64,000 bases of DNA from Phycomyces blakesleeanus NRRL 1555(-) (taxonomy: Eukaryota; Mucoromycota; Mucoromycetes; Mucorales; Phycomycetaceae), in contig NW_017265142.1 of assembly GCF_001638985.1 (NCBI RefSeq), forward strand, positions 1,356,572 to 1,420,571, written 5' to 3'. Below the pieces are notes generated by a model. The model ran no database searches. It was given only the letters and a program-made list of their open reading frames with translations, and was not told the origin of the DNA. Of the stretch, positions 9,359-63,175 are shown piece after piece; position 1 is the first letter of the stretch; each line of letters begins with the position of its first letter. Both the position numbers and the translations under genes were made by a program.

Positions 9359-10705
9359 ATGAGTACCCCTGAGGGATTGAACCCACAGGACAGGGCACAC
9401 ACGTTACGGCAAGGTAACCCACCTAACCGTGCCCAGTCTATAACACTACGTCCAAAGAACAAATCTTTGCACATCTTCACTGCTCCCAACTTTGACAAGA
9501 ATATGATTGTGGATCTTGCATCCGCTGCATGGGCTAGTACCATCCATCCAATGAGTGTCTTGTTTAATCTCGGAAAACTCGTTCCCGCAAGGGACGTGGA
9601 TGATGTTCTCTCTGACCATGTAGGCCGGATGACCTCTCTCACTCTCCGTTATACTTGCTCAAAAGACCTTCTGGCAGAAGCCTTCTTTACTGACCCTTCC
9701 TCCCGCACCAAAGCAACGTCTGATGGGTTGACCTATCAGAACACCCGAATCATTGCTACACCAAGATTGCCTTCTAACAGCCACATTGTTAAGGTTAATC
9801 TTTACCATATTAACGCCTGCGATCCTAGCACAGATCTACTCGAGCCCATCGAAAATGCATTCTGGCCTTTTGGCAAAATCGTTCAGCTGAGAGCTTATCT
9901 CTCACACCGTGGTACTTTCCGTGGTGAAGCCACTATCTATTTAGACACCTCTGGACAAGATGAAGTCCGCAGTCTCCCAAGCCGTCTCCACCTTGGTGGG
10001 TCTCTTTCCTGCCTTGCTGAGCTCCACTCCACCGATATCACACCTGTGTGTGGATACTGCTGAGAGGAAGGGCATTATCTACGCTCCTGCACAAAACGTC
10101 CTCCCTGCGCACCTCGCTGCCAACGATGCGGTGTTCTTGGTCACGCCATAGACAGTTGCAAGTGCCCCACTCATCCAGACAATATCGAAGCCGAGCGGGC
10201 TATCCAAGAGCAGCAGCAGATTGCACTTGCCGATACTGCGTCCCTTCGCGCACACCAATACTCGGTCGCTATGATAGAGACACCCGTACCACCAGTCACT
10301 TCATCAACCTTGACTCCTACCCATGCTTCACCCATTCTCAACCCACCTGCTACACACACAATACGTCGCCGTTCCATATCAGTGATGAATACTCGCGCCA
10401 TGACGACCAGAAACCGGACCCCACACAACGACAATCCCCCAATTCCATTTGATACAACTATGTATGACCCGACTGGCCGTGGGCTCAATGCCAGCAAGCA
10501 CTCACCAGGCGCCCGAGGCCTACATAGTCGCGATGATGGCATTAACCCAGCAATTTACACTGATGATGAACTTTGACAGTCTCTTTTTGAGGCCACTCTC
10601 CGGACTCGCGCCCAAGGTGCATTCCCGTATACTGATCTGGATGGTAACACACCTATGACTGATGGAACTGAAAAGTCTGACCGCTCAGGTCAGCCAAGTT
10701 CATAA
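9359..10705 (+). pseudogene. LINE-B ORF1, zinc-knuckle protein with two in-frame TGA codons
   Basis: The frame runs 448 codons from ATG 9359 to TAA 10703-10705, close to the 451 aa of LINE-A ORF1. TGA codons interrupt it at 10061-10063 and 10574-10576. The first lies within the first CCHC knuckle (CGYC, stop, EEGHYLRSC), at a position where LINE-A has Lys, so a basic residue such as Arg is plausible. The second knuckle CQRCGVLGHAIDSC is intact. Both flanks of each TGA continue in the same frame with coding character. The stop is followed directly by the ORF2 ATG. Inference: both TGA codons were CGA. Confidence 0.85.
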
Positions 10706-13700
10706 ATGACTGTACAACATCTTCACATAGGAACCTTGAATGTTCGAGGTCTCCTCTCTACCATCAATAACCCGCAATCCCCAAAACTTCTTTTCATCTG
10801 ACACCTTCGTACCCTTTCCCCTTCCCTTTCATTACTTGCTCTCCAAGAGACTCATTTACTCCCTATACATCACTCATCTATTCACCTTACATTCCAAGCA
10901 CAGGCCAGCCTATGGACCCCACATTGCGGCTTCGTCTCTTTCGATCCCCTCCTCCAATTATCTCAACTGCATGTTTCTCCTGACAACCGTGCATTCGTTG
11001 TCAAGGTTACACATACCAACCATCATGTTAATCCTTTTGTAGTTGTGGTTATTTATGCACCCAACATTCCTTCCCACCGGCGTACTTTCTTCTCCTCATT
11101 AGCACGCACTCTCCCTACTGTCATTCCTTCCCTGCCCGCCTTTATTCTGGGGGACTTTAACTGTGATCTTAGCCATCGTCGCAGCCATCCACCGGACTGG
11201 AAAGGATACATTCAGGGTAATTGCGTGGATGCCATCACTAATTCTTCTTCACCCCCATTACCCACTTTCCACAGCTCTCGCACCTGCACACGCATTGACT
11301 ACATTTTCTGTCCACACAGCATTGTTACCGAACGCCCTGATGTAACATTTATCAATCCTTTATGGACTGACCACTGCCTTCTTGCAGTCTCCATTCCTTT
11401 CTCTCGCCCACCAGGTCCTGGAGTCTGGAGGTTTAATACGCAATATCTCCTGCATGATGAATTTGATGCTCTCATTACTGACTTTCTGGATAAGGCCGAC
11501 TCTTTTCTCTCTCCTGACATGTCTCCCGGTTCTCGGTGGGATCATATTAAGCATGCTATCAAACAGCTCGCCCTAACGTACTCTAAACGAGTTCAACGTC
11601 AACTCCGAAATCAGGAACGCCATCTTCATCGTGCTCGAAATGAACTTGCAATTCATACTCGTTCTCCTCAACTTCTCCGCATTGAACATGAGCTTGCCAC
11701 CATACAATTGTCTCGGGCCTCCACCTTGGCTGCCAGATCTGGTGCTAAATGGTGTGAAGCTGGCGAGTCTTCTTCGAAATATTTCTTTCGTGTGCTCAAA
11801 CAGCGAGCCACTGCAAAAACTATCTCCTCTCTTGTCGACCCTGTCACTGGCGCGATCTACACCTCTCCCGCGGATTTGCTTGGCCATACTCGCTCTTTCT
11901 ACCAATCTCTTTACTCGCCGGAACCCATTGACTATCCTGCTGCACACTCTCTTATCAACAAATTCCCACCTTCTGCCCGTCTGTCTTCCACTGACTCTGC
12001 CTACCTCATTGCTGATGTCACCTTGGATGACATTCTGTCTGTCCTTAAAGCCACCCCCATCAACTCTAGTCCTGGGATGGATGGTTTGCCCTACCCATTA
12101 TGGGCTCGGCTCTTCTGTCACCCAACGGTCCAAAATCTTGCAGTTCAAGTCTATAATAATGCATTGCATGGTGTTTTTCCTCCATCTTGGCTGGAAACCG
12201 TACTTGTTCTCCTACCAAAAGCCAGTGACACTACCTCTCTCCGCAACTGGCGACCCATATCTCTTATAAACTGTGATGCCAAGTTGTTCACCAAAATGCT
12301 TACGTCCTGTTTACGATATGGTATCAACACACTCATAACACCATTCCAAACGGGTTTTATGGCAGATCGGTTTATTGCTGACAATGGTTTGCTGACACGC
12401 CTTGCCATGTCACATGCACAAATAACCCAAGACCCATGTGTTGCCCTTCTTTTGGATCAGGAGAAGGCCTATGACCGTGTCCACCCTGCGTATCTTCGTC
12501 TTGTCCTGGCCAGAGCCAGTTTCCCCACAATTTTTGTTGACTCCATCTGTGGTCTCTTCTTTTCTACTCAAATCCACGTGAATGTGAATGGGCACATATC
12601 TTCTTCTTTTCTACAAAGCCAGGGGCTACGTCAAGGTGATCCTCTCTCCCCCTTGCTGTTTAACCTGGCCTTCGAACCTTTGCTTAGATCCATTCTCGCT
12701 TCTCCTGCCATCCGTGGTTTCCGATTTCTGGTTCCGCCATTTCTCTCATCGTCCTCTCCTGAGCTCTCACCACCTCCACTCAAACTTCTTGCTTATGCCG
12801 ATGACCTTCTCGTCTTTCTTTCTCTGCCTGCCGAGATGAGTGGTCTACTCAACCTTTTGCATATATTTGGCTTAGCCTCTAACGCGAAAGTCAATCTCCA
12901 TAAGACAGTTGCTGTTGCTATGTCTGGACAATTTCATCCGGATTGGGGCCCTGTATTGGATGCTGCTGATATTCACAGTCGACATGACCGTCACTCCGCC
13001 ACTGCCATCCGTTACCTAGGCTTCCCATTGAGCTCACATCCGTCCCAGCTTGAGACCTTCCGTGCGGCTTTACTGGTCAAGCTTAGGAACCATTGCACGC
13101 TACTTTCTCAAAGATGCTTGTCCGTTTGTGGTAAAAGTATTGTGGCAAACTCACTTCTTCTCAGCTCAGTATGGCATATGCTATACGTGACTCCTGCACT
13201 GCTATCTTCCTTTGCTGCCATTCGCACTCATATTCGCTCGTTCCTGCGACTGGGTTTCGGTAGCCCTGGCTGGCCGCTTCTCTGTCTGCCACGCAAATCA
13301 GGCGGTTTGGGCCTGATTGATCCTGATCATCAACAACGAGCTCTTCAATTGCGCTGGATTCTCCCTATCTTGCATTCTCACTCTTTTTCTTCTACTTCCT
13401 TTATACTGCCATACCTCGAATTTATACTTCCTCTAAACTTTCGCGCTCCTTCTGCCAGTATTGCACTTTTGTTTCCCTGTAGTAGTGCAACTTGCCCGAC
13501 TTCACTTCTTCCACTGCATCGCGCTTGTACCTCACTTCTTCCAGCTTCTCTCCCATCCAACTTGCAATTGCCGCCAACTGTGGTCCAACACTTCCCATTA
13601 ACTTCAATATGGATGAACGCGCCACCCTTTGTTGACTCTTCTCTGAACCTGAAAACAATTCTGGTTTCTGATGCATTTTCTCTGGAGACTGATGACCGTC

Positions 13701-14419
13701 TTGTCCGCAAGGTTCGTGGTACGTTTTCTCGGGCACATAATTGTATCGGTCATTTCTTCCAACAGATTGATTCTGGCAGGATGGTCCTCTGTCCTTGGTT
13801 TATCTCTTGCCTTGAACATCGACCTTCTACTGACACCCCTTCCCCCGATCTTTCCTCACTTCTTTCTTTGGTACGGTTGGACAACACTAGTTTGGGTAAA
13901 GCTAGCACCGGATCTCTTCGACGCCATCTTCGCCTGCAAGTGCCCTCATCTCTAAATTCGTCTGTCCAATGGCGTAAATTCTGGTCTGTCTCTATACCCC
14001 ACCACTGTCGCACAGTCTGGTGGAAAATGCTTTGGGATAGAACGCCAACCCGAAAACGTCTCAATCTATTTATACCTCGACGCTTCCCCAGCTCATCTTG
14101 CATCTTTTGTCAAGATGCTACTGAAGATCAGTATCACTTTTTCTTTGGCTGTTCTATCAAACGGCAGGTGTGGAACGTCATTCTCTCTCGCTTTTGCCTG
14201 GCCTGGAACCTTGCTGAAATCTGCCTTCTCCTTACCAGAGGCAGCTTCCCACCACGTTCCTCCCATCAAGGCCTTTGGATTATCCTTTCCGCTGTCACTA
14301 CTAAAGCGATTTGGAGTGCTCATTGGAAATTTGTTTTTGATGACCAACCCTTTCTGTCAGGCGTTGTGGCACAAAAAGCGTCCACTGTAATAGAAAAACA
14401 CATCGGTACACTAGCTTAA
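10706..14419 (+). pseudogene. LINE-B ORF2, endonuclease/reverse transcriptase with one in-frame TGA
   Basis: The frame is 1238 codons and open except for TGA at 10799-10801 (codon 32). LINE-A has CGC (Arg) at this position within the matching FIRHL context. The APE endonuclease covers residues 1 to about 235 (LNVRG, LALQETH, VVIYAP, ILGDFN, RIDYI, WTDHCLL). The reverse transcriptase includes LLLDQEKAYDRVH (about 582), GLRQGDPLSPLLFN (about 645) and LLAYADDLLVF (about 694). A C-terminal zf-RVT knuckle (CIFC...HFFFGC) starts near residue 1131. The protein nicks the target DNA and copies element RNA in place. One nonsense change separates this copy from an open frame. Confidence 0.9.
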
Positions 14420-14543
14420 GTATTTCCTGTCTAATTTCCTCTCCTGTTTCATTCCGTTTTTTTCTTATATTTTCGTATTTCCTCCCCCTTGTCTCTCTAT
14501 CTCTTATCTGTTCAATTAAGTCCACTTTGATGGCATTTTAAAA

Positions 14544-14565
14544 GCTGCACGCAGAGCGTGGCAGC
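14544..14565 (+). other. 3'-terminal hairpin of LINE-B
   Basis: GCTGCACG CAGAG CGTGGCAGC pairs as GCTGC/GCAGC and ACG/CGT with a bulged G. It lies about 15 nt before the A tail, the same place as the LINE-A hairpin although the sequences differ. Confidence 0.5.
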
Positions 14566-14817
14566 AGATCAATAAAATACTAAAAAAAAAAATACTTCTT
14601 TAACCAATATATTTTCTTCATTTTTCACTGTATATTTAATTCTAGTTTTATAATAAAAATCTATAATATAGTATATTTTATGATTTATAATATGTAAGAG
14701 AACATACATTTTAAAAAAGTCTTTTTTATATTGATTTGATTGAAAATTGGTTTGATTTGTTTATTTTAGATAATTAAAAAAACTTTTTTTTGACAAACAT
14801 TGTAATTATATAATAGT

Positions 14818-15096
14818 TGAGGTGTACGAATAAATTTCATAAAGGGAACAATAGGTACTGTGAGAGTGTTGTTTATTTAAGAAAGAAGATCATAGCTGTT
14901 TATATAGACATTTGGTTCCCTAATTTAAGATCTCCGTTAGTTAATGGTTGGTTATCACTGAAGCAGTGTGAAGTGTACGAGTGCCTGGTGTGTGTTACGT
15001 TCCTGAGATGTGACCCTGCCAGGTTCATTAGCAATTGTAGTATCCGTTATGGATTGTGGAGTTTGTATTTCACTCAATTGTGGTGTGTATACCACA
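14818..15096 (+). repeat. Candidate solo LTR, second family
   Basis: This 279-bp, GC-richer block starts TGAGGT and ends ACCACA, and is flanked on both sides by ATAGT (14813-14817 and 15097-15101), a 5-bp duplication. No coding function is supported; the frame through it lacks recognisable features and begins with TTG. It does not resemble the LTR at 4807 or 15423. The ends are short, so chance is possible. Confidence 0.4.
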
Positions 15097-15422
15097 ATAG
15101 TTATTCATAAAACTATCAAATCCATTAATGATTTTAAGTATATACTGCTAATTGATCCTTAGTTTATGATATTATACTAATGCTTATATAAAGTATAATA
15201 TGATTTTAAAGCTTGTAATAAAAAAAATTGAGAAAATAATTTTTAGACAATAGAATACATATAAGCTAATATTATCTTAGTATAATTATTATATGCATAT
15301 ATCTTAAAAAGAACTTACTGATATAAAAATAATATAATCCTTGCCATATGAACTATTGTTACAAAATATTATGGTTAACATTACATTTAAGATAAATATA
15401 AAAGCAATTAACATACAAGAGA

Positions 15423-15964
15423 TATGGTGATCTAGACACTCGGATGCTGGATTTATTACATATAAAAACATATTTATATTGAGATAGCGTAGTAGCTATC
15501 ATCTTGGCAGCATATAGAATATATATAAACGATTAAGTAATCAGCCCAATAATTATTACAGTTAGTACTGTAGATAATATCTTAAAGATTGTTAAGATAA
15601 TTATATCATACTGCCGGGTAAACTGTGTCAGATCGATATGGAGCTAATTTAGTAGGAAGTCCTAAAGCTCTAGTGTAAAAGAGAAAATAATAGCTAAGAG
15701 CTAAAGAAATACAATTTATGACTTGATGTCATAATTGTAACACTGACACTAGTTAAGTAGTAAATATACTCTAATAACCGAATATAGTAAAGGAAGAAAA
15801 CCTTAAGAAACTAAGACGTAATGACAAGAGCAGATTGTGTTTTCTTATAAAAAGGGACACTTTTTATTTATGAATAAAAAACTTATATACAGTCTCAAAG
15901 TATTTCTATACGTCTCTATTATCAAATATTTTATTTTCTATTATTTCGTACTTGAAATACCATA
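15423..15964 (+). mobile_element. Solo LTR, second copy of the LINE-A-inserted family
   Basis: The segment is flanked by a perfect 5-bp duplication AGAGA (15418-15422 and 15965-15969). Its ends read TAT and ATA where copy 1 has TGT and ACA, consistent with one G-to-A and one C-to-T change. Shared blocks with 4807-5228 include GGATTTATTACAT, the GCAGAT(T/C)GTGTTTT...TATAAAA promoter region, the ATATACAGTCTCAAAGTATT block and ACGTCTC. It is 120 bp longer than copy 1, so one has an internal indel. No internal region remains. Confidence 0.85.
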
Positions 15965-16503
15965 AGAGACTTACTAAACACTGTTTTTTGCATAATAAAA
16001 AAGTATAGACTGGTTAAATAAGCCCTGTTAAAGAAATATAATAACAAAGATAAAATAATAATTAAAATATAGAAGATACAAAACTTCAATAAATATGTAC
16101 TACAAAATTTCACAAGAATAATATTGCTAAGAGGATCAAATAGATACAAAGTCTAGAATATTAAAGCTTTATAATCCATTAAATATTTCCTCAAAATTAA
16201 GCTTATTCTCTCGCTCTCAAATTAAGGTATAGGATAGCCAGGAGTGTCTATTGTATATGTAATTACTTTATTCGATCTTTAAAGGTCGAATTTATTTTAA
16301 AAAAATATTGAAATTTATGAAGATTTATTTTTCTTATATTTGACACAGTATGATGTTCTCATCGATTGATAAGTTTCCACAACTGCTGCCGGAGTGCTTT
16401 GTTTTTTACTGGGTTTGTCCAATCTTTATTTTTTAGCAGACATACCTTTTCCATTAGATAACACCTATAATACCAATGGATATTAAAGTTTTTTCATGTA
16501 TAG

Positions 16504-17397
16504 AAATTGAACAATTTTGCACCTGCCGACTATTCGTCCAACGACTTTTTGTATGCTGTTATTGCACGCAGTACTGCTCCGGACAGTAGCAAATTCATGC
16601 TACCTGATAATGCAACGACTGCTATGATGTCAACTCATAGCCAGGCTACCGAAAGTACGTCGGATCCGTTGATTTCGATGATGAGCACAATGAACAACCA
16701 GTTGAAAGGTCTGGCAAACCAGGTTTTGCTCATGGCTGGTGATATCACTTTATCCAACCAGACCATGACTTGCCTCCAGGAGACTGTGACCAACATCCTC
16801 GCTGGCCAGGCTGTCATTCACGATGTTGCTTCCAGATGTAATACTACATCAAGCACTGAACTCGTTGGTGGTTTTTCAGCTTTGATGGAAGAAGACAGTG
16901 TTTCTGGAAGGAGACACACAGAAATATCAGTAAGTCTTTTTAAAAAAAATATATGGTAAAAGCATCTGACACTGCTCTTGTAGGTCCTTATTAGGGACTA
17001 TGTTAAGACACGAAACTTTACCAGCATTGATCCAAGAAAAATTGCTGCGAATGATGCAAAACCAGAATGGGTGCTGACAAGCTACTTCACAAGTAGCTAT
17101 AACCGTGGTCTTGCGTCGGCTATGAGCGCATACTTGCGGAGACAGCCCTGTTCTACTGGAATACCTACACGGGTTCTTGAAGGTATGGTAAAAAACCATT
17201 TCACCAACCAAGTGCGTGAATCTCGCAGACCGGCCGAATCTGTAGAAAAGAAAAACACTGCCTCAAGAAGACGTCAGCGCGGTGTGGCAGTAAGTTATTC
17301 ATTTAATATATATATATATTATGGCACACTATTTTTAATATATTTCCAGCTTCTTCTCCGGCGTGGAAATGCATACAAAGAAAATAAAGATGCATAG
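16504..17397 (+). pseudogene. Unidentified intron-containing gene, incomplete 5' end
   Basis: Three coding exons join in phase 0: 16504-16929, 16984-17289 and 17350-17397, with introns GTAAGT...TTGTAG and GTAAGT...TTCCAG. The product has a Met/Thr-rich N-terminal part, then a central segment (VLIRDYVKTRNFTSIDPRK, PEWVLTSYF) and a basic C-terminus (RRRQRGVA, LLLRRGNAYKENKDA). No start codon is in frame. A plausible first exon (MFSSIDKFPQLLPECFVFYW, from 16353) is out of register, so there is an unseen splice or damage. I do not recognise the family. The terminal TAG is formed by the TA and first G of the inserted element that follows. Confidence 0.5.
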
Positions 17398-19084
17398 CTT
17401 CCGATGTGTGTCGATGTGTGAGAAATTGGTGATTGGATATTTTTTTCTCGTTTTTTTTTCTTTTTTAACAAACAACCAGTTAAGTAAAATCGTTCACTTT
17501 AGGTACTGCTGCAGCTATTGTCAGCGCCCGTTGATTGATTCGACAAGATTGCGTAACCATTTATCCAACATTCATAACATTCATGTTCCTTCCATCTCCA
17601 GAGGGAAAAGGCGCTTCGATACCCTGCCAATTACCTATGTCAACAAGTTTAGTTATGGTCAAAATCAAGACATCAATAAAGAATATGGTTGTCCTGCATG
17701 CTTTTCCCACTTTCCCGAGATCAATTCACTGCATTCACATATCCAGGAGGTACACATGAAGCAAAATAATGAACATGTTTCCGATCAAAGTGAAGAAGAC
17801 GGTAATACAAACGCAACACTTGTATCTATTGCAACATACAGTGGTAAATCGATTGATTTTTCTGCAACACACAATATATACGAGCAGCATCTTCCAAAGC
17901 TGTCAAGAGATTGTCTCAAATTCCTGGAACCAATAGTAACAGTTGACTTGCCATCTAGCAAATGTTTAAACAAAAAAATGCGTGACGAGGTTACCAATGA
18001 AAACCGAAAAAAGAGAGAATTACATACCCTCCAGTCTTTCACAAATGTACAAGCACTCCTGCTGGCTACTTTAGAACAATCTCTAGGTACATTGCCGCGC
18101 TGGATATGGACGCAGACAAACGAAGATATCGCGAATATAAGCCATGAATATCAACTTCTCCAGGCATCCAAATTCATCCTTACCACATTTGCAGACAACT
18201 GCACACAGAAAAAGCAGCAGAAAACCAACTCGGAACGAACATACTGGATTAGGCACATAGTACATATTTTTCAATCATTTGCGAACCAAACTGGCTATTT
18301 GCAGTTCAACTGGTGCGAATCTCAGACCAAACAGCATGCATTGGCAGGAATCAATCTGAACAACTGGACAAAGCCCACAGCGCGATTCTGTGATGGTCTC
18401 GGATTCGACTGGCTAGGCAAAGAAAGATTGTCAATGGAAGGATCTAGCGGTCAACATGAAGAAAAAATCGATCATACTATCAGCGATACCGCCAAACAAA
18501 TAATCAATACTATTTCAATGCTGAAAGGATTCACAATGGCAAATACGGATGCAAGCTTTGAAACATTGAGACAGGTTAAGATCTTTGGTGTGCAGGCTAT
18601 TGAAAGGACGATCACCTTAACAGAAACAAGCTATGACTAGGAATCTACCAACTATCTCTACAAGGTGGTACGAACAGCGCGGATTCCAATCGAGTATGAA
18701 GAGCGGTATAATTGGCTATGAGTATTTGAATTATTAGCGTACCTGCTAGTTGAATTGAAAGAACAAGTTCGTGTACATGAAACTCTTAACAAGGAACAAA
18801 GCAGCATTAGTATAGTTCATCCCGAAGAAACTGTACGAATCAAGCTGAGCATCGGTTTAGACGACAGCGCATAAAAATGATCAATATTTATTTCAGTATT
18901 GTATGGAAATTTATGGTTATCTAAATCATTGTGTGGCTAGGAGGGCCTGCACAGGATTTCTTATTCTATTATCGAATTATGAAAAATAAATAAATCAGTT
19001 TTCTTATATTATAACCGCCAGTAACTTCTATTGAAGCCGGCACACATCGACACACAACGGCACACAACGGCACACATCGGAAGC
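17397..19084 (+). mobile_element. 1.69-kb TIR element carrying a decayed zinc-finger gene
   Basis: The left end GCTTCCGATGTGTG (17397 onward) is the inverse of the right end CACACATCGGAAGC (to 19084). With TA on both sides, 24 of 26 bases match when two mismatches further inward are counted. The right arm extends as four CACACA(T/A)CG-type units, the left as two. TA duplications lie at 17395-17396 and 19085-19086. The interior is almost filled by the C2H2 gene at 17503-18874. I see no DDE motif, so mobility would need another source, or the zinc-finger protein belongs to an unrecognised transposase type. Confidence 0.55.
17503..18874 (+). pseudogene. Decayed C2H2 zinc-finger protein gene inside the TIR element
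   Basis: The coding frame runs from a splice acceptor (TTCACTTTAG, ending 17502) to TAA 18872-18874, interrupted by TAG 18638-18640 and TGA 18719-18721. Beyond both stops the frame stays clearly coding (ESTNYLYKVVRTARIPIEY, VFELLAYLLVELKEQVRVH). The N-terminus has two C2H2 fingers: YCCSYCQRPLIDSTRLRNHL..H and YGCPACFSHFPEINSLHSHI..H. The rest is unfamiliar and holds no DDE, RNase H or recombinase motif I can recognise. A first exon is not identified. Both stops are explained by C-to-T changes (CAG or CAA, and CGA). Confidence 0.55.
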
Positions 19085-19133
19085 TATTGATTTTTATTAA
19101 AGTCATAGTTTGGATTAAATTTGATTATCACTA

Positions 19134-19486
19134 TTATTCGGGCCCGACGTTTTTCCTCTCGGGCACGACGTTTACAAATTATATATTTTCTATATACTGC
19201 ATATAAAAAAATCAAGAAATTAATATATTTACTACTTAAGTACAGCTAAAAATTCCATTATATTAAATGAAGAAGTACTATTCATAAATTAAATTATTTA
19301 TATTTTGATAAATTGATTTTACTCATATAAACTACTTAGGGTGGTTAGGGACCAGATAAAATTGCTGGATGCCGGACAACAAGTCACTTTTTATGAGGCC
19401 GGTAAATGGTGAAAGGCGGAGATTCAATAAGCGTAGCGCTCCAGAAAAACGTCGTGCCCGAGAGGAAAAGTGTCTGGCCCGAATAA
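19134..19486. repeat. MITE-like element with 40-bp inverted repeats
   Basis: The left arm TTATTCGGGCCCGACGTTTT... (19134-19173) is the inverse of 19447-19486 with about three mismatches. Each arm contains two direct copies of a CGGGCnCGACGTTT-like unit, resembling paired transposase binding sites. A TA lies near each end (19132, 19488), with one extra T on the right. There is no coding capacity. Confidence 0.6.
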
Positions 19487-19545
19487 TTAGCAAAATACGT
19501 TACAATAATAAAAAAAGAGTTGCATGGCCAAAAACACCACCCTAA
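19336..19545. repeat. Second, overlapping inverted repeat
   Basis: TTAGGGTGGT at 19336-19345 is the inverse of ACCACCCTAA at 19536-19545. It overlaps rather than nests in the 19134-19486 element, so one of the pairs may be accidental or the block is a chimera. Confidence 0.3.
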
Positions 19546-21485: not shown

Positions 21486-22255
21486 AAAATTGAAATTGCA
21501 TTTTAACAACAAGGCAAGGCGAAACAAGGAAAGCAGATCCAAGTCAAGTGCACCAATATTGAACCAAAATTGTATAAATATCAATGCGTGTATATATTTA
21601 TGTATATATTAAAGAAAAAAAAGAAGCCTCAAACATGTCATATCCAAGCTCACATTAATCAGTGAATTCTACGTTATGTAACCAAGAGACATATATCAAA
21701 AATCAAATATCAAAACATTTTGTAAAATAAAATAAACTATTCTTTGAAAATACTTTCCGATAGAACCTTTAATAGAATCCTTATTATTGTCAAAATATAA
21801 CCAATGAGCGCGTTTAGACAGCGTCTAATTTATATCGATGTTTATTTTTAATTTCTTTTGGAGGATAAGTTATATTAACATAAAGAAGTAAGTCATAATA
21901 AAATAATGGACCAATATGTACACTCGACAAGTCTGTTATTTAAAATTACCCCATAGTTTAAGATTGTTGACTGCGATTTCCTTTACAATTGTTACAACAA
22001 AGACACAGAAGCATACGATAATATTTATAGCCTGCGGCTCTACCGGAACATTCTGCTGACGAAGCAGATAATATATCTTATTATTATTATTATTATTATA
22101 TATATGCCCGTGTGCATGTGTATATTTGTAGTGAGCTGATTGTATAATCTAAGTAATTTCTTTTTACATATGAATGAACGGATAAGCAATTCACATCTTT
22201 GACCGATACGTCTACGCATACTTTGGGCTCTGAAGCGCACTTGAGAAGCCTCTTA

Positions 22256-47830: not shown

Positions 47831-48805
47831 TACACTCTTTCCAGAAAGTAAATTCGCTCTTGTCGGAAAGTAAATACAGCCAATGACGAGAACAGAATTC
47901 ATGTTGAACAACAAATAAATTCGCCCTGGTGGAAAATGATTTCATCAGATGGCAAGAACAAAATTCATATTCTACGAAATGTAAATTCGTATTCGCTGTC
48001 AAATAGGATGTCCTGTTGCCAAGAATATTTAGCCTTGGCATCATTGGATATAACCTTGTTTGATTTTGTAAAAAAGCACTGCATCTTGTCTCTCAAAAAA
48101 GCTCGTTTTCAACCTGTAGATTGGAACAGCAAGGAAAAGATTCAAGAACGCCTGGATTGGATTCATAAATGGGAAAAAACAGACATGGATTTTACGACCA
48201 ACTGCGTCGTCCTTGATGAATCTGCATTTCATATTAATTTGAAACGTAGTATGGCATGGTCAAAGAAAGGCTCCCCTGCAGTGGTCACAGTTCCCAAAAC
48301 ACGAGCAAAAACAACAGCCATTTTAGGTCCAATTTCTGCCCAAGGTCTGATTAAATGTAGCCTCAGGCTTCCTCAGCCTCCATCCAATAAAAAGAGAAAG
48401 CAAGGAGAAGACGTTGGGCGTGTGAGCAAAGGGACAGTTATGGGACACTATGTTAGTTTTCTAAAAGCCACGATGGATGAAATGGACCAGCATCCACATA
48501 TGAAAGGCCATTACCTCGTGATGGATAATGCTCCAATCCATACATCGGTTGATATAGCTAAATATGTAGAATCTCGCGGTTACTGCTGTGTCTATTTGCC
48601 GTCCTATTCTCTTGAACTTAATCCAATTGAACAGTTTTGGTCAGTGGTTAAGAGTAAAGTCAAACGAAACAAGCTACTGGAAACTGAGACACTTATGACA
48701 AGAAGCAGTGAGGCATCTAATAGTTTTACGCTGAGCGATTTTAAAGGGTTTGTTGGGTATTCTCACAAATGCTTGGACAAGTGTCGTAACAGGCAAGCAC
48801 TCTGA
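47831..48805 (+). mobile_element. One-ended Tc1/mariner element (N-terminally truncated)
   Basis: The left end TACACTCTTTCCAGAAAGTA lies beside a (TA)n run. Two subterminal copies of a unit of about 66 bp follow (GAACAGAATTCATGTT near 47890 and GAACAAAATTCATATT near 47955). A transposase fragment reaches 48805. I could not find an inverted copy of the end between 48806 and 50084. The left end also occurs alone at 60750. Confidence 0.65.
47936..48805 (+). pseudogene. Tc1/mariner DD34E transposase, N-terminus missing
   Basis: The frame of 289 aa contains the DDE catalytic core: VVLDESAFH (first Asp), LVMDNAPIH (second Asp) and LELNPIEQFW (Glu), with 34 residues between the last two, so DD34E. 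MAWSKKGSPA and SKVKRNKLL-like segments match Mucoromycota Tc1-type proteins of the 'DDE superfamily endonuclease' kind. The helix-turn-helix DNA-binding part (about 100 aa) is absent: the left terminal repeat directly abuts the core. The first 35 or so codons overlap the subterminal repeats and are probably not protein. The copy is likely inactive. Confidence 0.8.
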
Positions 48806-50084: not shown

Positions 50085-51412
<1,328 letters not shown>

Positions 51413-51837
51413 AGTACCCCATAAAATAATAACAGTAATAGTAATCCCAGAATTCTAAAGAAACCCACATACACAACAAAGAAAATAATAAGAACATTTA
51501 GTAAGAATAATTATAATCATCATAAATAAAACAAAAACAATGAATAATGAATAATGAAATCAGTAACGCACAGACATTCTTATCATCAATAACACAGACA
51601 TGTGTAAAAATCTTTATGTAATTAAAATTACAGTTCCTGTAATACTCTGATAATCAAGGGAGTCCAACTGTTCTTTTCTTTGGTAATATATATATATATA
51701 TTTATTTACAATTCAAATAAAACAGTTTGAATTCCTTCATTCGTTCATTACTGATGTTCTTTTTCTTAAAAAAAAAAAGAAACATTGGATTATCATTATC
51801 ATTATCATCTTCTTCCTTTTATCTTTTTTGTTTTGGT
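51413..51837. other. Convergent 3' ends of the Rab7 and SOD2 genes
   Basis: The region is AT-rich and holds both 3' UTRs. AATAAA-like motifs occur on each strand (for example 51716-51721). No gene is seen. Confidence 0.4.
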
Positions 51838-54893: not shown

Positions 54894-56745
54894 TCATGAA
54901 TGTCCATACATGCCCTTGTAGAACGGTTCAAGACGAGTCCGGTCAACAGTAGCAAGATAGTACTTGCCGCCACTGTGGGTCCAGCTCACAGCTTCCGAAA
55001 AGTACTCGTATTCCTCGACTCTCAGAATAGATTCTGGCATATGAAACGTCCGCTGGTTGATCTTGTGGTGTTTGGGCACAAATGATTTTAGAGAGATGAT
55101 CCGGGTACCTTCTTTAAGATCAAGAAAGAGCTGTGCAAGAGCATGATTTGTGGCAGCATCGAATGCGTAATTGTTGACCAGCAACACATCAGCCCTCTTT
55201 AGTGTCGAATACATGCCGTTGGTTGCCATATCCAAAAAATCCCCATGACGAAAATGAATCTTTCCGGTAGGTAACAGCCAAGCTCTGTATCAAACAAACA
55301 AATATTTTTTTTTGAGTTTTGGACTTCGTTTGCTTCTGTAACAATCCTTATTTTCTTACCTCATTCTGGATGCATACTCTTTGAGTTGTCGTTTGGCATA
55401 TCTGCAGGGTGTTTCCATAATCTCTATTCCATAGGCTTCACAACCTGTCTGGGCTGCGACTTGTAACACCACATTCCCAATCCCACAGCCAAGGTCCATA
55501 AATACACTCGATGAAGTAATTCCCGTTTTGGATATAAACTCTTTGACCAAAATTGAGTTGATCTCACCATATACATTATTTGAAAATGCTAAAGATTTTT
55601 TTTTTTGGTTTGTTTCATTAGTTTCAATTGCTTGCTCATAAGTTCAAATCAAAAAAAAAAGAAAAGAGAAAAATTACCTGCGTAGTTATTAAGTGCATCT
55701 GCTTCATGGGCAACAGTCCTACTGTAGACCTGATAGAGAACATGGCAGGCGAGATCGTAATCAGGATGTCGCATTGCCTGTGCGTTCTTCTTCAACTCCC
55801 CCTTTTCTTTGAGTGTCCTGATCACCTTATTGAAATCTGTTACGGCCTGGATAAATCCAGGGCTGTGGCGTCGATTCCTGTACTTTGTCAGGTTTCTCAT
55901 GATGCCTTGCGAATCATCTCCGAGAAGCTTCTGTTGAGCCGGCGTCAGGTAATCATCGTGGATGAAATCAACTGTTCGCATTAGATCGCACATAGGATTG
56001 TATTCGTCTTTATCCTCTACTTCACTATCGATCGTCTTTCCGTGAGCGTTTGTCTTAATCACTGGCTTGAGTAAAAGAAAACTTGGAGAAAGACAAATAA
56101 ATACATAAAAATCACATACACACATTTATATATACATATGTTTAGACTGTACTATGTATTACTGTTCCCATCTTTGCTTACTGTTCATATTCTCCTGGAT
56201 ATTCCAGTGTCACTCGATGTACTTGTTTGCTTTGTCTGGATATATTGGAGCTAGTATCATCTGAATCATATTGGCTTTCTATTGGCGCAGTAAAATCTAA
56301 ACAATATTCATATATTCTCTTACTCAATAAACAATATACCTCTGCACTTCACCTCTTCGCTCTCCTTTTCTTTATCCTATCTAGCTTTATATCTTTCTCT
56401 CTTTCAAAAATAATAATAGCAATTATATATATATATATATATGTGTGTGTAATATTTACAAGGTCGATATTTGGACCGAGCAGCCTGAATAATCAATTCA
56501 GAGTGGGTAATCGTTCTTCTCTTTGGTTGAGGGGGAGTCTCACGGAGCTTCTTTTCTCTGCCATGCTCAACCGTCAATTTTCGTTTTGTGGTCATAGTCT
56601 CGGCTAATGATGACTTTGAAGAGGATGAGCCGTGTAGTTTAGTCGAGTCTGATGCTGGTCGACTAATGACAGGTCTTTTCTTGTCTATGCGTAAGAGGGA
56701 TCCTTGGACATTTGAATGTCGAGTAGTTGCTGTCGTAATATTCAT
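54894..56745 (-). CDS. DOT1: Dot1 histone H3-K79 methyltransferase
   Basis: Five exons (56745-56460, 56296-56182, 56081-55678, 55588-55360, 55284-54894) close to 474 aa. The catalytic domain (about 130-474) shows NNVYGEI (273-278), the SAM loop FMDLGCGIGNVVLQVA (298-313), EAYGIEIMETP, and the active-site NNYAF (382-386). HFLLLKPVIK and DEYNPMCDLMRTV precede it, as in fungal Dot1. The 130-residue N-terminus is basic (TTKRKL, EKKLRE, PKRRT), suited to nucleosome binding. Dot1 methylates Lys79 of histone H3 without a SET domain. The start ATG 56745 is chosen because upstream frame is poly-Phe/Tyr simple sequence. Exon 3's acceptor is fixed by the frame. Confidence 0.94.
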
Positions 56746-57105
56746 AAACACAAAGAAAAAGAAGGAAAGAAGGAAGGAAGGAGAGAAAAGAAAGTAGTAG
56801 TAGTAGTAGTAGTGATAGTAATAGTAAGAAGAAATAGGAAGACGGACAGAAGGAGTAATATTTAACCCAGGGAGAGAATAAAAATAAAAATAAGAGTTAG
56901 TGAGTGAGTGAGTGCGAGAGAGAAAGAAAGAGAGAGAAAAGAGAGAGAAAGGTCTGGAAGAGCTAAAAATGGATTCTGGGCATTGACTTGAGTTGAATTG
57001 GATTGAATTGAATTGAATTGAATTGAATTTATTTAATAACATAAAATAAAAATAAAAATAAAAATAAAAATCTAGTATACCACCAGGTACAGAAAAAGAA
57101 CACCA

Positions 57106-57288
57106 ATGAAGCATGTTGGATTTTCAGTTGCCGATCCATTCAAAAAATACAACATCTTGGCATACGAAAATAAATTATACGCAGTCTGTAAGCGATACTT
57201 CAATATCCAATTATTTAATTTCGATTATACAAAAAGAGATCTAACATTGGATTTAAATCAGCGCTTCTGTGATCTCAATCAAGAATAA
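57106..57288 (+). CDS. Possible small protein or exon relic, unidentified
   Basis: An ATG frame of 60 codons lies in the gap between the DOT1 start and the TM9SF end, on the opposite strand. Its composition is ordinary (FSVADPFKKYNILAYENKLY), unlike the simple sequence around it. No domain, upstream exon or neighbour helps to identify it. A gene relic is as likely as a real small gene. Confidence 0.25.
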   Translation: MKHVGFSVADPFKKYNILAYENKLYAVCKRYFNIQLFNFDYTKRDLTLDLNQRFCDLNQE

Positions 57289-57445
57289 GAACTGTGATAA
57301 GTATACATATAAATATATATTTGCAAGCCAAATTTGTGTATAATATTGTGTATTTATTTAGCTGTAATTTTTTGCGTGCGATTTTGTGTTTAACATATAT
57401 ATATATAAAATTTAAGGAAATCAAAATAAAAACCAAAAAAAAGAA

Positions 57446-60400
57446 TCAATCAATCTTGACACTTTGATATATTCTACGTACAAAGATGGTTGCAAATGTG
57501 TGCCCTACATAGCCTATAAAAGACAAACATTATGTCATTTGCATATGCGTATATTTAGTTACCCTTGAAAATACTCCAAAAAAAAAAAGTAAAATAAAAT
57601 AAAGAACTGTAATAATGATAATAATTACCTAGCATGAAAAACATCCCAAGTGACAGGAGGGCAGTGTATCCAAAGTAGAAGCTGATCTGGAAGAGACCAG
57701 TCATTCTACAAAGAAAATAACAATGATATTTAATCATATTAAGAATAATGCAAGCCCCCAAAATAACAGTAACACATAACACCAATATAAAGGTTAAATT
57801 TTGAATGGAATTTTAACAGTAACTTAATACTTATTATCATCTCTCTCGATATCTCTATCTTTAGGTCTGTTTCTTTTACCTCGTTTTCGCAAAGAAATAA
57901 TAGATAGAGTACAAATATATGTAGGCCGATGTAGAAGCACATGTCATGAAGCTCACCCAATGCCTGTTCAAAATCACCAGTCGTGAAACCTTAATCCAAA
58001 AAAGGAAATACCCAAAAATAATGATTAATTACTTACCAGCGATGGTCTTCAGAGTTGAGCAGGAAATATGTGCTCACGATAGCTACACAGGCACTGACAA
58101 TCAAGAGAATGCAGAACACCAGCAACATAAAACCATATACATAATAGATCTTGTAGGTCCAGAACGAGGTGAAGATAAAGTAGATCTCAATAAAGATCGA
58201 TCCAAAAGGAAGAATTCCACCCAATGCGATAATCATCAGGGGTTCAGCGTACCAGACCTTCTCTGGAATAGGTCTCGGGATAGGGTTCACACGACAAGGG
58301 AAGTCGGCCGGCCTCTTCCAGTTTCTACCCATAATTGCACCAAGCAAAGTCAATGGGAAACAGAGGAACGTCCATATAGCAACCATAGCCAACTAATAAA
58401 GTACAATGCATCCCCATCAAATACAGGCATAACAACTTTGAGCATTAAAAATTGTATTCCTTCCACCCCCTCTTTTATGTATGTATATATAATGTTTTTT
58501 TTTCTTTTCTTTTTTCGGCCTTGTGATTACCATAATTGGAAATGCAATTGCACGAGAGCTGGAATAGTAGATCGCAACGCTGTTAATGTAGCCACCCACG
58601 CACACTACCATAGCAGGCCACAGACTTGCAGTGAGAATAACAGTTTTCACCCAATCTTTGCCTATCGACACATTTATATCCTTAGCGACCCTGTTCACTT
58701 TCATTTGGTTCTATTCAACTGTCCAACATTGACTTACCTCCCCAGCAAGCGTAGTACCTCGCACTTGTAAACCCTGCCACCGCAGATGTAACCGCGTACA
58801 AGAAAACAGTAGCCGTCAAAATTGTGGCTCTTTCTGTGTATAGTCCTCCAACAATTGTGTATAAAATCACCACACCCGCCAGGATCACCAATTGACTTCC
58901 AGTACCCATAAAAGCCGACAACAACATCAAGCGTGGAGGTTGTCTAAAAACATCTCCATGAACCTGTTTCCATCCATAATCATCCCCAAAGTCTCTATCC
59001 TATACACAAAAGAGTAAAATTAAAAAGAACAAGAACACGTTAATTAAAGCAATTAACTTCTATTCTTTTTCTAACTCTCTTACTCTCTCCGCTATTTAAA
59101 ATAACTGCTTACAAAATCTGCTGGTCCCTCTTCACGGTCATAACGAGCATAATCGCTCTTGATTGTTCTCAACAGGATAACAGACACCAGGCCAGTCAGG
59201 AAGAGCACCATCATAAACGAACTGAAAATCGAAAGCCAGTGTACCTATTTATTTATTTATTTATTTATTTATTCCAAACCTTCAATACTCTTTTTATATA
59301 TTTTTTATGCTCATTTACCTTGTGTTCAAAAAAGTCAGTTTCAAGCAACAATTTGAAGCGATCCTCAAACTCAATTGATGTTTGCTGCCATTGAACAGAG
59401 TAACTAAAGGACATTTCGAAAGGTACAACATCTGTGACCTTTACTGGATTACCCATTTGGAGTTTCACCGAAATAATCTGTACTTCAATACATTAAAATC
59501 CACCCACCCATCAATCAATCAATCAATCAAGCAAGCAAAGAAGCATGATCATCCACACCGTTAGCCAACTTACTCTGTCCGCATTGTATTCAAACAAAAG
59601 ATTCTTGTGAGTAAATATATAGTATTCTTTCCGTTGAACCGGGGAGCTATCATCAAATTCAGCTTTAGCTAAACGAGTTCCGACTGGACCAGAGATCGGC
59701 AGGTCATCTTTATTGTACCATCCAATGTAAATGTAGTTTGTTTTAAATTAGCCATTATAAATATATATATATATATATATATATACACAAAAAAAAGAAC
59801 CTTGTATTTGTACTTATCAAAAGAGAAGCCTACCGATGAACATTGTAAACCAATATGCATTCATTGCTGCAGATTCAAACATGGCGATATCTTCTTGATT
59901 CAGCTTCTTTGTACAGAGAGGTTGATCCTCCACATCAGCTACTCATACATTAACCCAAGTTATATATATGTTTATATATATATATATATATTATGTTTGT
60001 CATTTTCTGTCTCTATCTATCTTTTAAATCATCGATACGCCTATTTCACTTTCATAGCTTTGAAAAGAAAACAAGAATGTCCTTACTCAGGTATCGAATA
60101 GAAATTCCAGAGTTGATAAGATCCATGCCCTGAAGCGCTTCACCAAATGTTTCATGATGATGCTGAACAGCACTGTCTCCATGGCAGAATGGGAGTTGAT
60201 AGTAAGGATAGGTCTCCTGACGATTGTGAATTGGTCTGACTGTATCCATCCATGCTACCACCTCTTCTCCTTTCTCATACTAAAACTTTTATCATCAGCT
60301 CATCTGGATTAACAGAACAGAAAAAGAAGAGAAAGAAGAAAAAAAACTTGGAATGTAGAATGTGGAAAAGGGAAATATTTCTCCTACCACATGATTGTGT

Positions 60401-60462
60401 TCATCTGCCCACACGCTCCCTACAAGAAGTAGCAGTAGAGCTACTAGGGTCGCTTTAGTCAT
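57446..60462 (-). CDS. TM9SF1/3-type nonaspanin, nine-membrane-segment protein
   Basis: Twelve exons (60462-60388, 60279-60087, 59938-59834, 59707-59574, 59477-59319, 59244-59113, 58999-58738, 58661-58531, 58392-58037, 57963-57880, 57705-57629, 57513-57446) close to 591 aa. Residues 1-19 form a signal peptide; the mature protein begins [16 protein letters not shown], the family hallmark. PQETY-like [13 protein letters not shown] follows. The luminal domain ends at [12 protein letters not shown], then nine hydrophobic segments. [32 protein letters not shown] and the C-terminal VKID with TGA are conserved; KxD ends retain the protein in the Golgi or endosomes. Nonaspanins help sort membrane proteins and act in adhesion and nutrient responses. 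Confidence 0.95.
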
Positions 60463-60749
60463 TCTATGCCGTCGTATCACACACGATCGGGAACAAAAAA
60501 AAAGAGGAATGAAAAAGAAGAGAGGGATTTGTTCTAATTGATGTGTGTGCCTGAATGTGTATATACGAGTGGGTATGTGTGTGTATATCCTCTATTAAAG
60601 AAGGATAAAAACAGATATTTAGAAAGGATGAAGAAAGGTATTATAGATTGATGAGCAAGAAGTGAAGGAAAGGGAAACAGGGAGGATTGTGACGTCGCAT
60701 AAACGTCCAAGTGAGAGGCACGTTGCAAGACCGCACATACACACATAGA

Positions 60750-60776
60750 TACACTCTTTCCGGAAAGTAAATTCGC
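60750..60776 (+). repeat. Orphan end of the 47.8-kb Tc1 family
   Basis: TACACTCTTTCCGGAAAGTA and the following AATTCGC match 47831-47857 with one difference. Similarity continues loosely (CATATTCTAC, CTGTCATTTTCTAC). No transposase lies near; this is a fragment or a MITE whose second end is lost. Confidence 0.6.
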
Positions 60777-61039
60777 CCATATTCTACAAGTACGGAGCTA
60801 TAAATCCTGTCATTTTCTACAGTTCTCATGTACAACCAAGAAAATAAAAAACCTACTCTTTCCCATTTTTTTTTAAAAAAAAATCGTACCTATGTTGTTC
60901 GAGTGCATTCGTTGCGCTAATCAATTTGAAACCAAACGCATGAGGGTCAAATTTTGGAAAGCGATCGGCTGCATTTTATTATTATTATTTTCTGGGAGAG
61001 GAAGGAGGGTGTATTCAGAGACGGAGGAGTGAAGGGTAA

Positions 61040-61538
61040 TTAACGGTTGTAATGTCCTGTAATTGATTTTCGCTCACGCGTTAATTTGGGGTCAGTAACG
61101 TGGAAGAGGATATTATCAGTGAGTGTAGTTTGGCCGTTTACACGGTTGTGATTGTCGCTATTTATAATGTACTGGAAGCAGGCAATTGCCTTAATGATCT
61201 TGTTCACTTGCGAAAGAAAGAGAGGCTTTTGATCAAAGGTTAAAGGGGGTTGGATGTGAGCGCTTTCACACATGGTATACAGATGCGTTTGGACACAATG
61301 AAGGATGTAAGAAGTGGAATATTTAGCTATGACATAAATAAAGGTGAGGATGCGAGCGACCGATGGAACACAACCGAAGCTTACCGAAAGCAATAAAGGC
61401 AAATATGACCTTCAACCTGTGCTTATCTGATGCAGAATTGACCAACGCTGTGATGCGTATCAGATCAATGCCAACCAACCGATGATTGAGAGCCCGGTAC
61501 TGGGTTTTGACCTCAACCGAGCCAATTTGTTTGCTCAA
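61040..61538 (-). pseudogene. Unidentified coding relic
   Basis: Two overlapping minus-strand frames (61538-61323 and 61402-61040) have balanced composition, unlike the surrounding AT-rich DNA: KTQYRALNHRLVGIDLIRIT in one and VNKIIKAIACFQYIINSDNH in the other. One frameshift would join them. I recognise no family. It lies directly beside the Tc1 element and may be part of an older mobile element. Confidence 0.3.
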
Positions 61539-61932
61539 GGATGCTTTATATATGATATTGATCCAAGTAGTAGGTTTTGTAGTAGCTTGCTTTTCCTTGC
61601 CGTTGACAGATATTCTGCTAAAATTGGATTATGGGAGTCAAATCTCAATCTTTTCTGCGATATCCATTCTCTTTCCTCTGAAAGTCTTTACTTACGCTAA
61701 TTATAGGGAGACAACATCTTGATTCTACCGGACCACAAATTGTGCCTTCTTTGCCTTCATAGAATATTTATATCTGGTCCCTAAGGATACAGAATATTCG
61801 TATAAACATTTTCTTTTGTGCTTTAAAAAAAAAGAGCGGTTGTGGATTACTTACCAGTTGGTACTGGCAAACTCTGGAAATATAAGTAGTTGAAAGAAAA
61901 CGAAAGTCATCACACACGTAAGAAGGCTGATA

Positions 61933-62145
61933 TAGTAAATTCAAAAACCGGGAGCAAATGTAAAATTTGTACTCCGCAACTTATATCTTCTTGAGTTCTT
62001 ATTCTTTCGCGATAGTTTTAATACACTCTAGGACGTCTGTTAAAGAGCTACAACATACTATGCTAGTATAGATATATATATATAGTATTAATAAAAAGTT
62101 ATATGAAAAAAAGTGGAAATTTTCAGTGGCCCGGTTTTTTAGGTA
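61933..62145 (+). repeat. Left long TIR of the Tc1 element
   Basis: The repeat contains an outer CCGGG box, a palindromic (TA)n segment near 62070, and an inner GGCCCGG box ending AGGTA. It differs from the right copy by a short gap in the outer box (GGGAGC against GGGCCAGC) and the length of the (TA)n run. Confidence 0.9.
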
Positions 62146-62158
62146 AAGGTATCTTTTT

Positions 62159-63175
62159 TTATTTTTCATTAATAAGATACCCTTTCTTCAAAATGCATTT
62201 ATACATTCTGCTTTGCATGGATTCAATTAGATTCTTGCACATCTCCTCTGGGATACTATCCCACTCATTCTGGAAACGGGATCACAATTCCCTCATTGAG
62301 CTGGCTGACTCTTCATATTGGTAGAGTTTACCCTTTGTGTACGCCCAAAGGTTTTCGATGGGATTAAGGTCAGGCGAAAACGGTGGGAAATCAATGACCT
62401 CAATCCCCTCTGCCTTCAACCACTTTCTGGTATTGGCTGCAGTGTGTGACCGGGCGTTATCATGCAAAAACATGATATCGGACTTGATGAGATTCTGCTT
62501 CTTCAAGGTCTTCAGTAAGCCCTGCTCCAAAACTGTTACGTATTTTGGGCTTGTCATGGTTTCATTGATCTTGAGAAGCTCTCCGTGACCTCTGGACGAA
62601 AAGCATCCCCAAACCATAACGTGTCCTCCAGCACGAACAGGGGAAGTCTTATCCTTATATTTTTTAATTGCCGACTTCTTCAACTTCCACCTCCATCACT
62701 TTCCATCCGAGCCAAAGCGATTCACCTTACATTCGTCTGAGAAGACAACACACTTCCAGTCCTCCACGGTGAAGTTGATATAGTTCCTTGCGAACTCCAT
62801 AGGCTGCTTGCGGATAGCGGGGTTTGTTTTTACCTTCGGAGGTGGTTCCAAGGTACAGATGAACCCAGATGCTTTTAGCAAGGTGCGGATTGCTGGAGCC
62901 TTGACAGCAAAACCTTCACCACATAGCCGTCTCTCTGCCTCTGTTGTTGTCATAAATTCCTCATTTAGGAATGCATAGATGATATGGTGGGCGAGCCTTT
63001 CATCGATTTGGGCAGGTCTACCCCCAGGAACTGAGGTAGAGATGTTCAATTTTCTTCGATATCTCTTGACAGAAGTCTGCGAAACACCAACAATCTTTGC
63101 TACCTCGGCTGTAGACTTTCCATGTCTAAGTTCAACTTCAATTGAGAGTATTTTGTCGCGTGAGATGGGAGACAT
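62159..63175 (-). pseudogene. Tc1 DD34E transposase with two in-frame TGA codons
   Basis: The frame runs 338 residues from ATG 63175 (MSPISRDKIL) to TAA 62159-62161, the usual length for Tc1 transposases. TGA occurs at 62696-62698 and 62282-62284 (minus strand). The N-terminal helix-turn-helix pair reads STAEVAKIVGVSQTSVKRYRR and GRPAQIDERL. The catalytic residues are VVFSDECKV, FLHDNARSH and DLNPIENLW, with DD34E spacing, followed by coding sequence to YLINEK. The first TGA follows FGSDGK, a site where Tc1 proteins often have Arg, so CGA-to-TGA is likely. The copy is otherwise intact. Confidence 0.88.

What the first reader, a model, noticed from the sequence alone, without database searches (positions are those of the whole stretch)
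9359..63175. Recurrent CGA-to-TGA nonsense signature across unrelated transposons
LINE-B (three), the terminal Tc1 transposase (two), LINE-A (at 6555, aligned with Arg in LINE-B) and the zinc-finger gene (18719, plus a TAG at 18638) are interrupted mainly by TGA in otherwise continuous frames. RIP would be expected to give many TAG/TAA from CAG, CAA and TGG as well. The bias to CGA points to CpG transitions, as from methylcytosine deamination. Host genes here show no such damage. Early-diverging fungi are better known for adenine methylation, so a cytosine-based process acting on transposons would be noteworthy.
Basis: partly seen in the sequence, partly recalled or inferred. Interest (0 to 1): 0.8.

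Follow-up and report, generated by a model that had tools for sequence, protein, structure and literature searches.

The report
Methyl-cytosine decay of Phycomyces transposons
In the mould Phycomyces, some transposon copies carry a strong C-to-T scar at CpG sites that makes TGA stop codons; this is what one expects from the DNA methylation already measured on this fungus's transposons, so it is real but not a new kind of process.

Summary
The three LINE-B TGAs and the LINE-A TGA (6555) are CGA-to-TGA changes relative to other genomic copies. The two Tc1 TGAs come from AGA and TGG, and the window Tc1 copy is CpG-clean. In the zinc-finger gene, TAG faces Glu/Asp in relatives and TGA faces Arg/Lys. 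In 33 copies of three families, 12 carry heavy damage. Their private C-to-T changes are CG 287/2299, CHH 150/11761, CHG 17/3352, against A/T transitions 39/20790. In the LINEs hits are close to independent between copies, and no copy shows strand runs. Flanks of damaged copies are CpG-poorer. The host is Phycomyces, very likely P. blakesleeanus, whose published methylome has CG and CHH but not CHG enrichment on transposons. The scar follows that order, so 5mC deamination is the best explanation. The novelty premise fails: 5mC on this fungus's transposons is in print, and CpG-type transposon mutation is known in other fungi. Raw CpG o/e does not separate repeats from genes here.

The parts
2761..8550 (+). 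LINE-A, a degraded non-LTR retrotransposon copy (endonuclease and reverse transcriptase); 94 transitions at 464 CpG positions against the majority of 12 other copies (3303-4807 and 5229-8550 aligned)
4808..5228 (.). 421-bp repeat inserted in LINE-A, 98-99% identical to 11 other genomic places; holds 2 CpG
6555..6557 (+). TGA in LINE-A ORF2; CGA in 11 of 12 other copies, TGA in 1
9300..14419 (+). LINE-B, non-LTR retrotransposon copy (reverse transcriptase, zf-RVT, endonuclease); 34 transitions at 392 CpG positions (9300-13859 aligned)
10061..10063 (+). TGA in LINE-B ORF1; CGA in 6 of 7 other copies, CAA in 1
10574..10576 (+). TGA in LINE-B ORF1; CGA in 7 of 7 other copies
10799..10801 (+). TGA in LINE-B ORF2; CGA in 5 of 7 other copies, CAA in 2
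61931..63572 (-). Tc1-like DNA transposon with terminal inverted repeats; the window copy is CpG-clean (1 of 78) while 5 of the 12 other copies aligned were put in the damaged class
62282..62284 (-). TGA in the Tc1 transposase; TGG in 10 of 12 other copies, TGA in 2 (not a CpG change)
62696..62698 (-). TGA in the Tc1 transposase; AGA in 11 of 12 other copies, AGG in 1 (transversion)
17339..18871 (+). C2H2 zinc-finger pseudogene; TAG 18638 faces Glu/Asp, TGA 18719 faces Arg/Lys in relatives

Best explanation
Transposon copies in this Phycomyces genome are methylated on cytosine by the host's DNMT1-type and DIM-2-type enzymes, mainly at CG and more weakly at CHH. Deamination of 5-methylcytosine to thymine then fixes as C-to-T (G-to-A on the other strand). 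Each inserted copy decays on its own after insertion. Where a hit falls on the first base of a CGA codon it makes TGA, the only stop that a CpG transition can make. Shown here: the context-specific spectrum, near-independent hits between copies in the LINEs, hits on both strands without runs, the CGA origin of the four LINE stops of the window, DNMT1-family genes, and CpG-poorer flanks around damaged copies. Inferred: that the mutated cytosines were methylated, that the deamination is spontaneous, and which enzyme wrote the marks.
For: Against the leave-one-out majority: CG 152/3048 vs other C 52/14485 (LINE-B, 8 copies), 276/6013 vs 101/25582 (LINE-A, 13), 113/1004 vs 170/7153 (Tc1, 13). Private changes in 12 damaged copies: CG 287/2299, CHH 150/11761, CHG 17/3352, A/T transitions 39/20790; in 21 clean copies CG 7/3833, CHH 26/22571, CHG 4/6351, A/T 29/38807. 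CHG below CHH, P 7e-5, 9e-5 with polarity from clean copies only. Copies hit per CpG site, observed vs expected if independent: LINE-B 100/75/30/8/1 vs 91.6/87/30.5/4.7/0.3; LINE-A 60/89/68/15 vs 52.9/101.6/64.2/13.3 (no formal test). No excess of strand runs in any of 12 damaged copies (lowest P 0.146). Published bisulfite data for P. blakesleeanus: 3.4% CG, 0.5% CHG, 0.9% CHH; transposons enriched in CG and CHH, not CHG; methylation varies among copies of an element (passages). Host: an NCBI P. blakesleeanus protein matches G000 at 100% over its 250 residues. DNMT1-type gene with two BAH domains, another exon of the DNMT1 superfamily.
Against: No methylation was measured at these copies. The CG to A/T-transition ratio (66-fold on private changes) is high, so an active mutator is not excluded. 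GCG is hit half as often as other NCG (46/617 vs 241/1682) and TCG most in two of three families, which plain deamination does not predict by itself. Damaged and clean copies were sorted after seeing CpG load, so CG contrasts between them are circular; the CH, CHG-CHH, flank and recurrence results are less so. The flank result has confounds: the window LINE-A and LINE-B copies lie in each other's flanks, L003 and L004 have alike flanks, and only one side was used for the LINEs. Raw CpG o/e does not set repeats apart from host DNA. In Tc1 the recurrence fit is poor (1/8/19/3/9/2 vs 1.4/7.1/14.1/13.1/5.6/0.8). Where two copies are hit at one site the same strand is favoured (LINE-A 71 to 42, LINE-B 35 to 25, Tc1 54 to 48, summed), from context or some shared ancestry.
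Confidence: 0.84

Rival explanations
1. A RIP-like programmed mutator acts on repeats at CpG, for example in the sexual cycle, by methyltransferase-directed deamination in bursts rather than slow decay.
For: Very high CG to background ratio, and CG hits relative to background differ among copies (LINE-B chi2 45.9, P 9e-8; LINE-A chi2 35.5, P 2e-5; Tc1 not significant, P 0.12). NCG context is uneven (GCG low); a TpCpG bias is reported in Microbotryum (passage).
Against: No excess of strand runs in 12 of 12 damaged copies; load is graded between families (private CG 8%, 17%, 21%); 21 of 33 copies are nearly undamaged although they are repeats; published lists of P. blakesleeanus enzymes name DNMT1, DIM2 and two DNMT2, no RID. 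Copying errors at birth followed by CpG decay with age would also explain the differences between copies.
Confidence: 0.12
2. Classic RIP (CpA-centred, Neurospora type).
For: The stops in the low-load LINE-B copies L003, L004 and L005 come from TGG and CAA, which are CpA changes on one strand or the other.
Against: The private CpA rate (62/5313) lies between those of CpC and CpT and about ten times below CG; the stops of damaged LINE-B copies in the aligned part are TGA in 8 of 8.
Confidence: 0.01
3. Chance and ordinary AT-biased mutation; the TGA excess is noise.
For: The Tc1 and zinc-finger stops of the window are of mixed origin; raw CpG o/e is alike in repeats and genes; TAG and TAA make up 34 of 81 stops over LINE ORF2 matches.
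Against: CG transitions exceed A/T transitions 66-fold in damaged and 2.4-fold in clean copies; 8 of 8 stops against 18 of 101 routes.
Confidence: 0.02
4. TGA is recoded or read through in these elements, so the stops are functional.
For: Frames stay open around the TGAs.
Against: TGA positions differ from copy to copy, with CGA or CAA in the others (6555 is TGA in two copies); matches with long open frames and no stop exist.
Confidence: 0.01

Closest known systems
5mC on transposons of Phycomyces blakesleeanus (Lax et al. 2024, PMC11258239; passages read)
   Same: Very likely the same species; CG and CHH but not CHG enriched on transposons, described as absent from active genes, variable between copies.
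   Different: That paper measures methylation; 'deamination' and 'point mutation' have no occurrence in its main text. Here the mutational scar is counted.
CpG-signature C-to-T mutation of transposons linked to a Masc2/DNMT1-type enzyme (Amselem et al. 2015, PMC4352252; passages read)
   Same: CpG-type C-to-T mutation of transposon copies in a genome with a DNMT1-type gene and no listed RID.
   Different: Ten genomes there, none found under the terms Phycomyces, Rhizopus or zygomyc; here a Mucoromycota genome, with a CHH component and a DIM-2-type enzyme besides.
[quoted passage not shown] title only, in a reference list)
   Same: By its title the same phenomenon, including 'some lower fungi'.
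   Different: Not held here; whether Phycomyces is among its species I could not see.
RIP of Neurospora
   Same: C-to-T hypermutation of repeats involving the DNMT family.
   Different: CpA preference is not met; premeiotic burst and RID dependence were not testable.

Membership tests
5mC-deamination decay of methylated transposons | C-to-T excess in the sequence contexts that are methylated in the host | tested here: met
   CG > CHH > CHG against published CG and CHH but not CHG enrichment
5mC-deamination decay of methylated transposons | Hits accumulate independently in each copy on both strands | tested here: met
   close to expectation in both LINEs, poor in Tc1
5mC-deamination decay of methylated transposons | The mutated copies are methylated in vivo | not testable with these tools
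   no methylation reads at hand
5mC-deamination decay of methylated transposons | Cytosine-5 DNA methyltransferases in the genome | tested here: met
   PF00145 matches at four loci; DNMT1-type with two BAH domains
RIP | CpA-centred C-to-T mutation | tested here: not met
   CAN 62/5313 (CAA 11, CAC 18, CAG 9, CAT 24) against CG 287/2299
RIP | RID/Masc1 gene | tested here: inconclusive
   PF00145 found four loci, none classified by a tree here; published lists name DNMT1, DIM2 and two DNMT2
RIP | Premeiotic burst on duplicated DNA | not testable with these tools
   needs crosses

The most novel reading that the evidence does not exclude
Phycomyces has an active, methyltransferase-guided CpG mutator of repeats (a CG and CHH version of RIP in an early-diverging fungus without RID), not just passive decay; it acts regionally, spares some copies, and leaves a CG > CHH > CHG signature with GCG avoided.
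Probability: 0.12. Interest if true: 0.7.

Novelty: new member of a known kind. Interest (0 to 1): 0.38.

Why it matters
It gives a quantitative mutational footprint of cytosine methylation in an early-diverging fungus, including a CHH-but-not-CHG component that mirrors the published methylome. If it holds genome-wide, transposon sequence alone would record long-term methylation context, and the link between a DNMT1/Masc2-type enzyme and CpG-type mutation would extend from Dikarya to Mucoromycota. It also shows that TGA-rich broken frames in such genomes need no recoding.

Tried and rejected
Raw CpG o/e in the window: repeats 0.53 to 0.70, host 0.68, not informative. Per copy it is: LINE-A 0.81-0.82 clean, 0.53-0.59 damaged; LINE-B 0.83 clean, 0.67-0.74 damaged; Tc1 0.64-0.73 clean, 0.28-0.55 damaged. 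Conserved-TGA or recoding idea rejected. The first LINE-B alignment mixed strands and was discarded. Strand-run test for a single-event RIP: negative. UDG-family genes match at two loci (PF03167); I did not classify them, so poor T:G repair is neither shown nor excluded. The 421-bp insert could not date the damage because it holds only 2 CpG. Rows left out: Tc1 copy L041 (86% identical); partial Tc1 hits L042-L058 (other families, fragments or terminal repeats); two of ten LINE-B hits over the whole 3-kb query and partial LINE-A hits were not fetched or not used. Paper searches for CpG mutation of transposons in Phycomyces or Mucorales (open-access library; one search listed 20 of 131) showed no such report in the listings; Bewick 2019 and Clutterbuck 2017 are not held, so 'not in print' is not claimed.
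Full report
What the window is. The window lies in a 53.5-Mb, 60-contig genome. A host bHLH protein is 76% identical to Phycomyces nitens, and an NCBI Phycomyces blakesleeanus protein matches the genome at 100% over its 250 residues. The host is therefore very likely P. blakesleeanus; one protein is a narrow basis for a species name.

Observation. LINE-B has in-frame TGAs at 10061, 10574 and 10799. In 7 other copies these codons are CGA in 6, 7 and 5, the rest CAA, which is the same CpG changed on the other strand. LINE-A 6555 is CGA in 11 of 12 other copies and TGA in 1. The Tc1 stops are of other origin: 62696 is AGA in 11 of 12 and AGG in 1; 62282 is TGG in 10 of 12 and TGA in 2. The zinc-finger TAG faces Glu, Glu, Glu and Asp in the four close relatives that cover it, and the TGA faces Arg, Arg, Lys and Arg. 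So the recurrent signature is right for the two LINEs, which are related (LINE-B ORF2 matches LINE-A copies at 38%), and wrong or unproven for the two other elements as they stand in the window. The Tc1 family elsewhere does carry it.

Counting substitutions. I aligned 8 LINE-B copies (of 10 hits over the whole 3-kb query; window 9300-13859), 13 LINE-A copies and 13 Tc1 copies. Against the majority of the other copies, CG transitions were 152/3048, 276/6013 and 113/1004. Transitions at other cytosines were 52/14485, 101/25582 and 170/7153; A/T transitions were 19/18437, 44/30738 and 114/12862. The window copies give 34/392 (LINE-B), 94/464 (LINE-A) and 1/78 (Tc1) at CpG positions. Later counts leave out the divergent Tc1 copy L041.

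Two classes of copies. On private changes, 12 copies carry heavy CpG load and 21 little. L036 sits in the damaged class by its shared changes; it has only 1 private CG hit of 22. Damaged: CG 287/2299, CHH 150/11761, CHG 17/3352, A/T transitions 39/20790. Clean: 7/3833, 26/22571, 4/6351, 29/38807. The classes were drawn after seeing CpG load, so the CG contrast is circular. The CHG-CHH contrast (P 7e-5; Mantel-Haenszel odds ratio 0.40 over three families; P 9e-5 with polarity from clean copies only), the CH contrast and the flank contrast were not chosen in that way. CG hits relative to background differ among copies in LINE-B and LINE-A, not significantly in Tc1. Copying errors at birth followed by CpG decay with age would give this; so would methylation of some copies and not others.

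How the hits fall. In both LINEs the number of copies hit at each CpG is close to what independent hits give; Tc1 fits worse. Where two copies are hit at one site the same strand is favoured (71 to 42 in LINE-A, 35 to 25 in LINE-B, 54 to 48 in Tc1, summed), which a context preference or some shared ancestry could give. TG and CA outcomes are mixed along each of the 12 damaged copies, and a double hit (TA) occurs once. GCG is hit half as often as other NCG (46/617 against 241/1682, P 5e-6); TCG is mildly favoured (P 0.025). CpG o/e of flanks is lower around damaged than clean copies (Tc1 0.36 against 0.71, LINE-B upstream 0.55 against 0.67, LINE-A downstream 0.66 against 0.82; stratified permutation P 2e-4; per family Spearman P 0.013, 0.076, 0.051). 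Confounds: the window LINE-A and LINE-B copies lie in each other's flanks, L003 and L004 have alike flanks, and I did not establish whether flanks are other repeats.

Stops. A CpG transition can make only one stop, TGA from CGA. In the aligned part the four damaged LINE-B copies hold 8 stops, all TGA. The stops in low-load copies L003, L004 and L005 come from TGG and CAA (L003 and L004 share one). Over the whole ORF2, L007 has in addition one TGA and one TAG; 15 matches at 82% or more hold 15 TGA, 8 TAG, 4 TAA, and all 40 matches 47 TGA, 17 TAG, 17 TAA (by hand). LINE-A frames were scanned in part: TGA at CGA sites four times (once in L009, three times in L021), and CAG or CAA stops once each in L010, L020 and L021. 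Among 150 scored of 444 candidate reverse-transcriptase domains, 43 carry stops: 47 TGA, 9 TAA, 2 TAG (by hand). TGA is thus the commonest stop but not the only one, in line with the weaker CHH process.

CpG o/e. The measure fails because low-load LINE copies start higher (LINE-A about 0.82, LINE-B about 0.83) and host DNA is itself below 1. Host genes cannot be called free of CpG loss on this evidence.

Mechanism and known work. Published bisulfite data for P. blakesleeanus show 5mC almost only in repeat-rich regions, 3.4% CG, 0.5% CHG, 0.9% CHH, with CG and CHH but not CHG enrichment on transposons and variation among copies (PMC11258239, passages). The same paper names DIM2, DNMT1 and two DNMT2; a review table agrees in its counts (PMC7862722, passages without column heads). 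In this genome PF00145 matches four loci: one is DNMT1-type with two BAH domains, one has an exon of the DNMT1 superfamily, one looks like DNMT2 by its motif (my recall, sequence), one was not read. Amselem et al. 2015 tie CpG-type transposon mutation to Masc2/DNMT1-type enzymes without RID in Basidiomycota (passages). The scar here follows the methylome order CG > CHH > CHG, so deamination of 5mC is the best explanation (0.84). A RIP-like active CpG mutator stays open (0.12). Moller et al. 2021 report a DIM-2-dependent mitotic mutator at CA in Zymoseptoria (PMC8016269, passages), so active versions exist in another context.

Verdict. Real, countable and well explained; a new member of a known kind. 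The CHH-without-CHG scar and the regional flanks are the parts that I did not see described in the passages read.

Noticed in passing
window 17339-18871: The broken C2H2 zinc-finger gene is 81-89% identical in protein to sequences of Mucor ambiguus, Backusella, Rhizopus arrhizus and Mycotypha, while the window's bHLH protein is about 39-61% identical to most of its relatives in those genera, over partial cover, and 90% only over a 13% core in Mycotypha. One Rhizopus record carries integrase and chromodomain matches on the same protein. It may be mobile or horizontally spread.
   Followed up: partly
window 4808-5228: A 421-bp, 27% GC repeat, 98-99% identical at 11 other places, is inserted in LINE-A.
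   Followed up: partly
window 19137-19505: A repeat of about 360 bp with 23 near-full-length related places (78-93% identity) and inverted ends, MITE-like.
   Followed up: no
L003 and L004 (contig C11, about 30 kb apart, opposite strands): Two LINE-B copies share a stop at window-equivalent 11750, which suggests a local duplication or a close parent-daughter pair.
   Followed up: no
L010-L019: Ten LINE-A copies are nearly identical and almost free of CpG hits, as after a recent burst; 9 of the 10 have an open frame of 1267 residues at the reverse transcriptase.
   Followed up: partly
window 47852-48802: An open 317-residue frame with a DDE_3 transposase match, not examined for copies.
   Followed up: no
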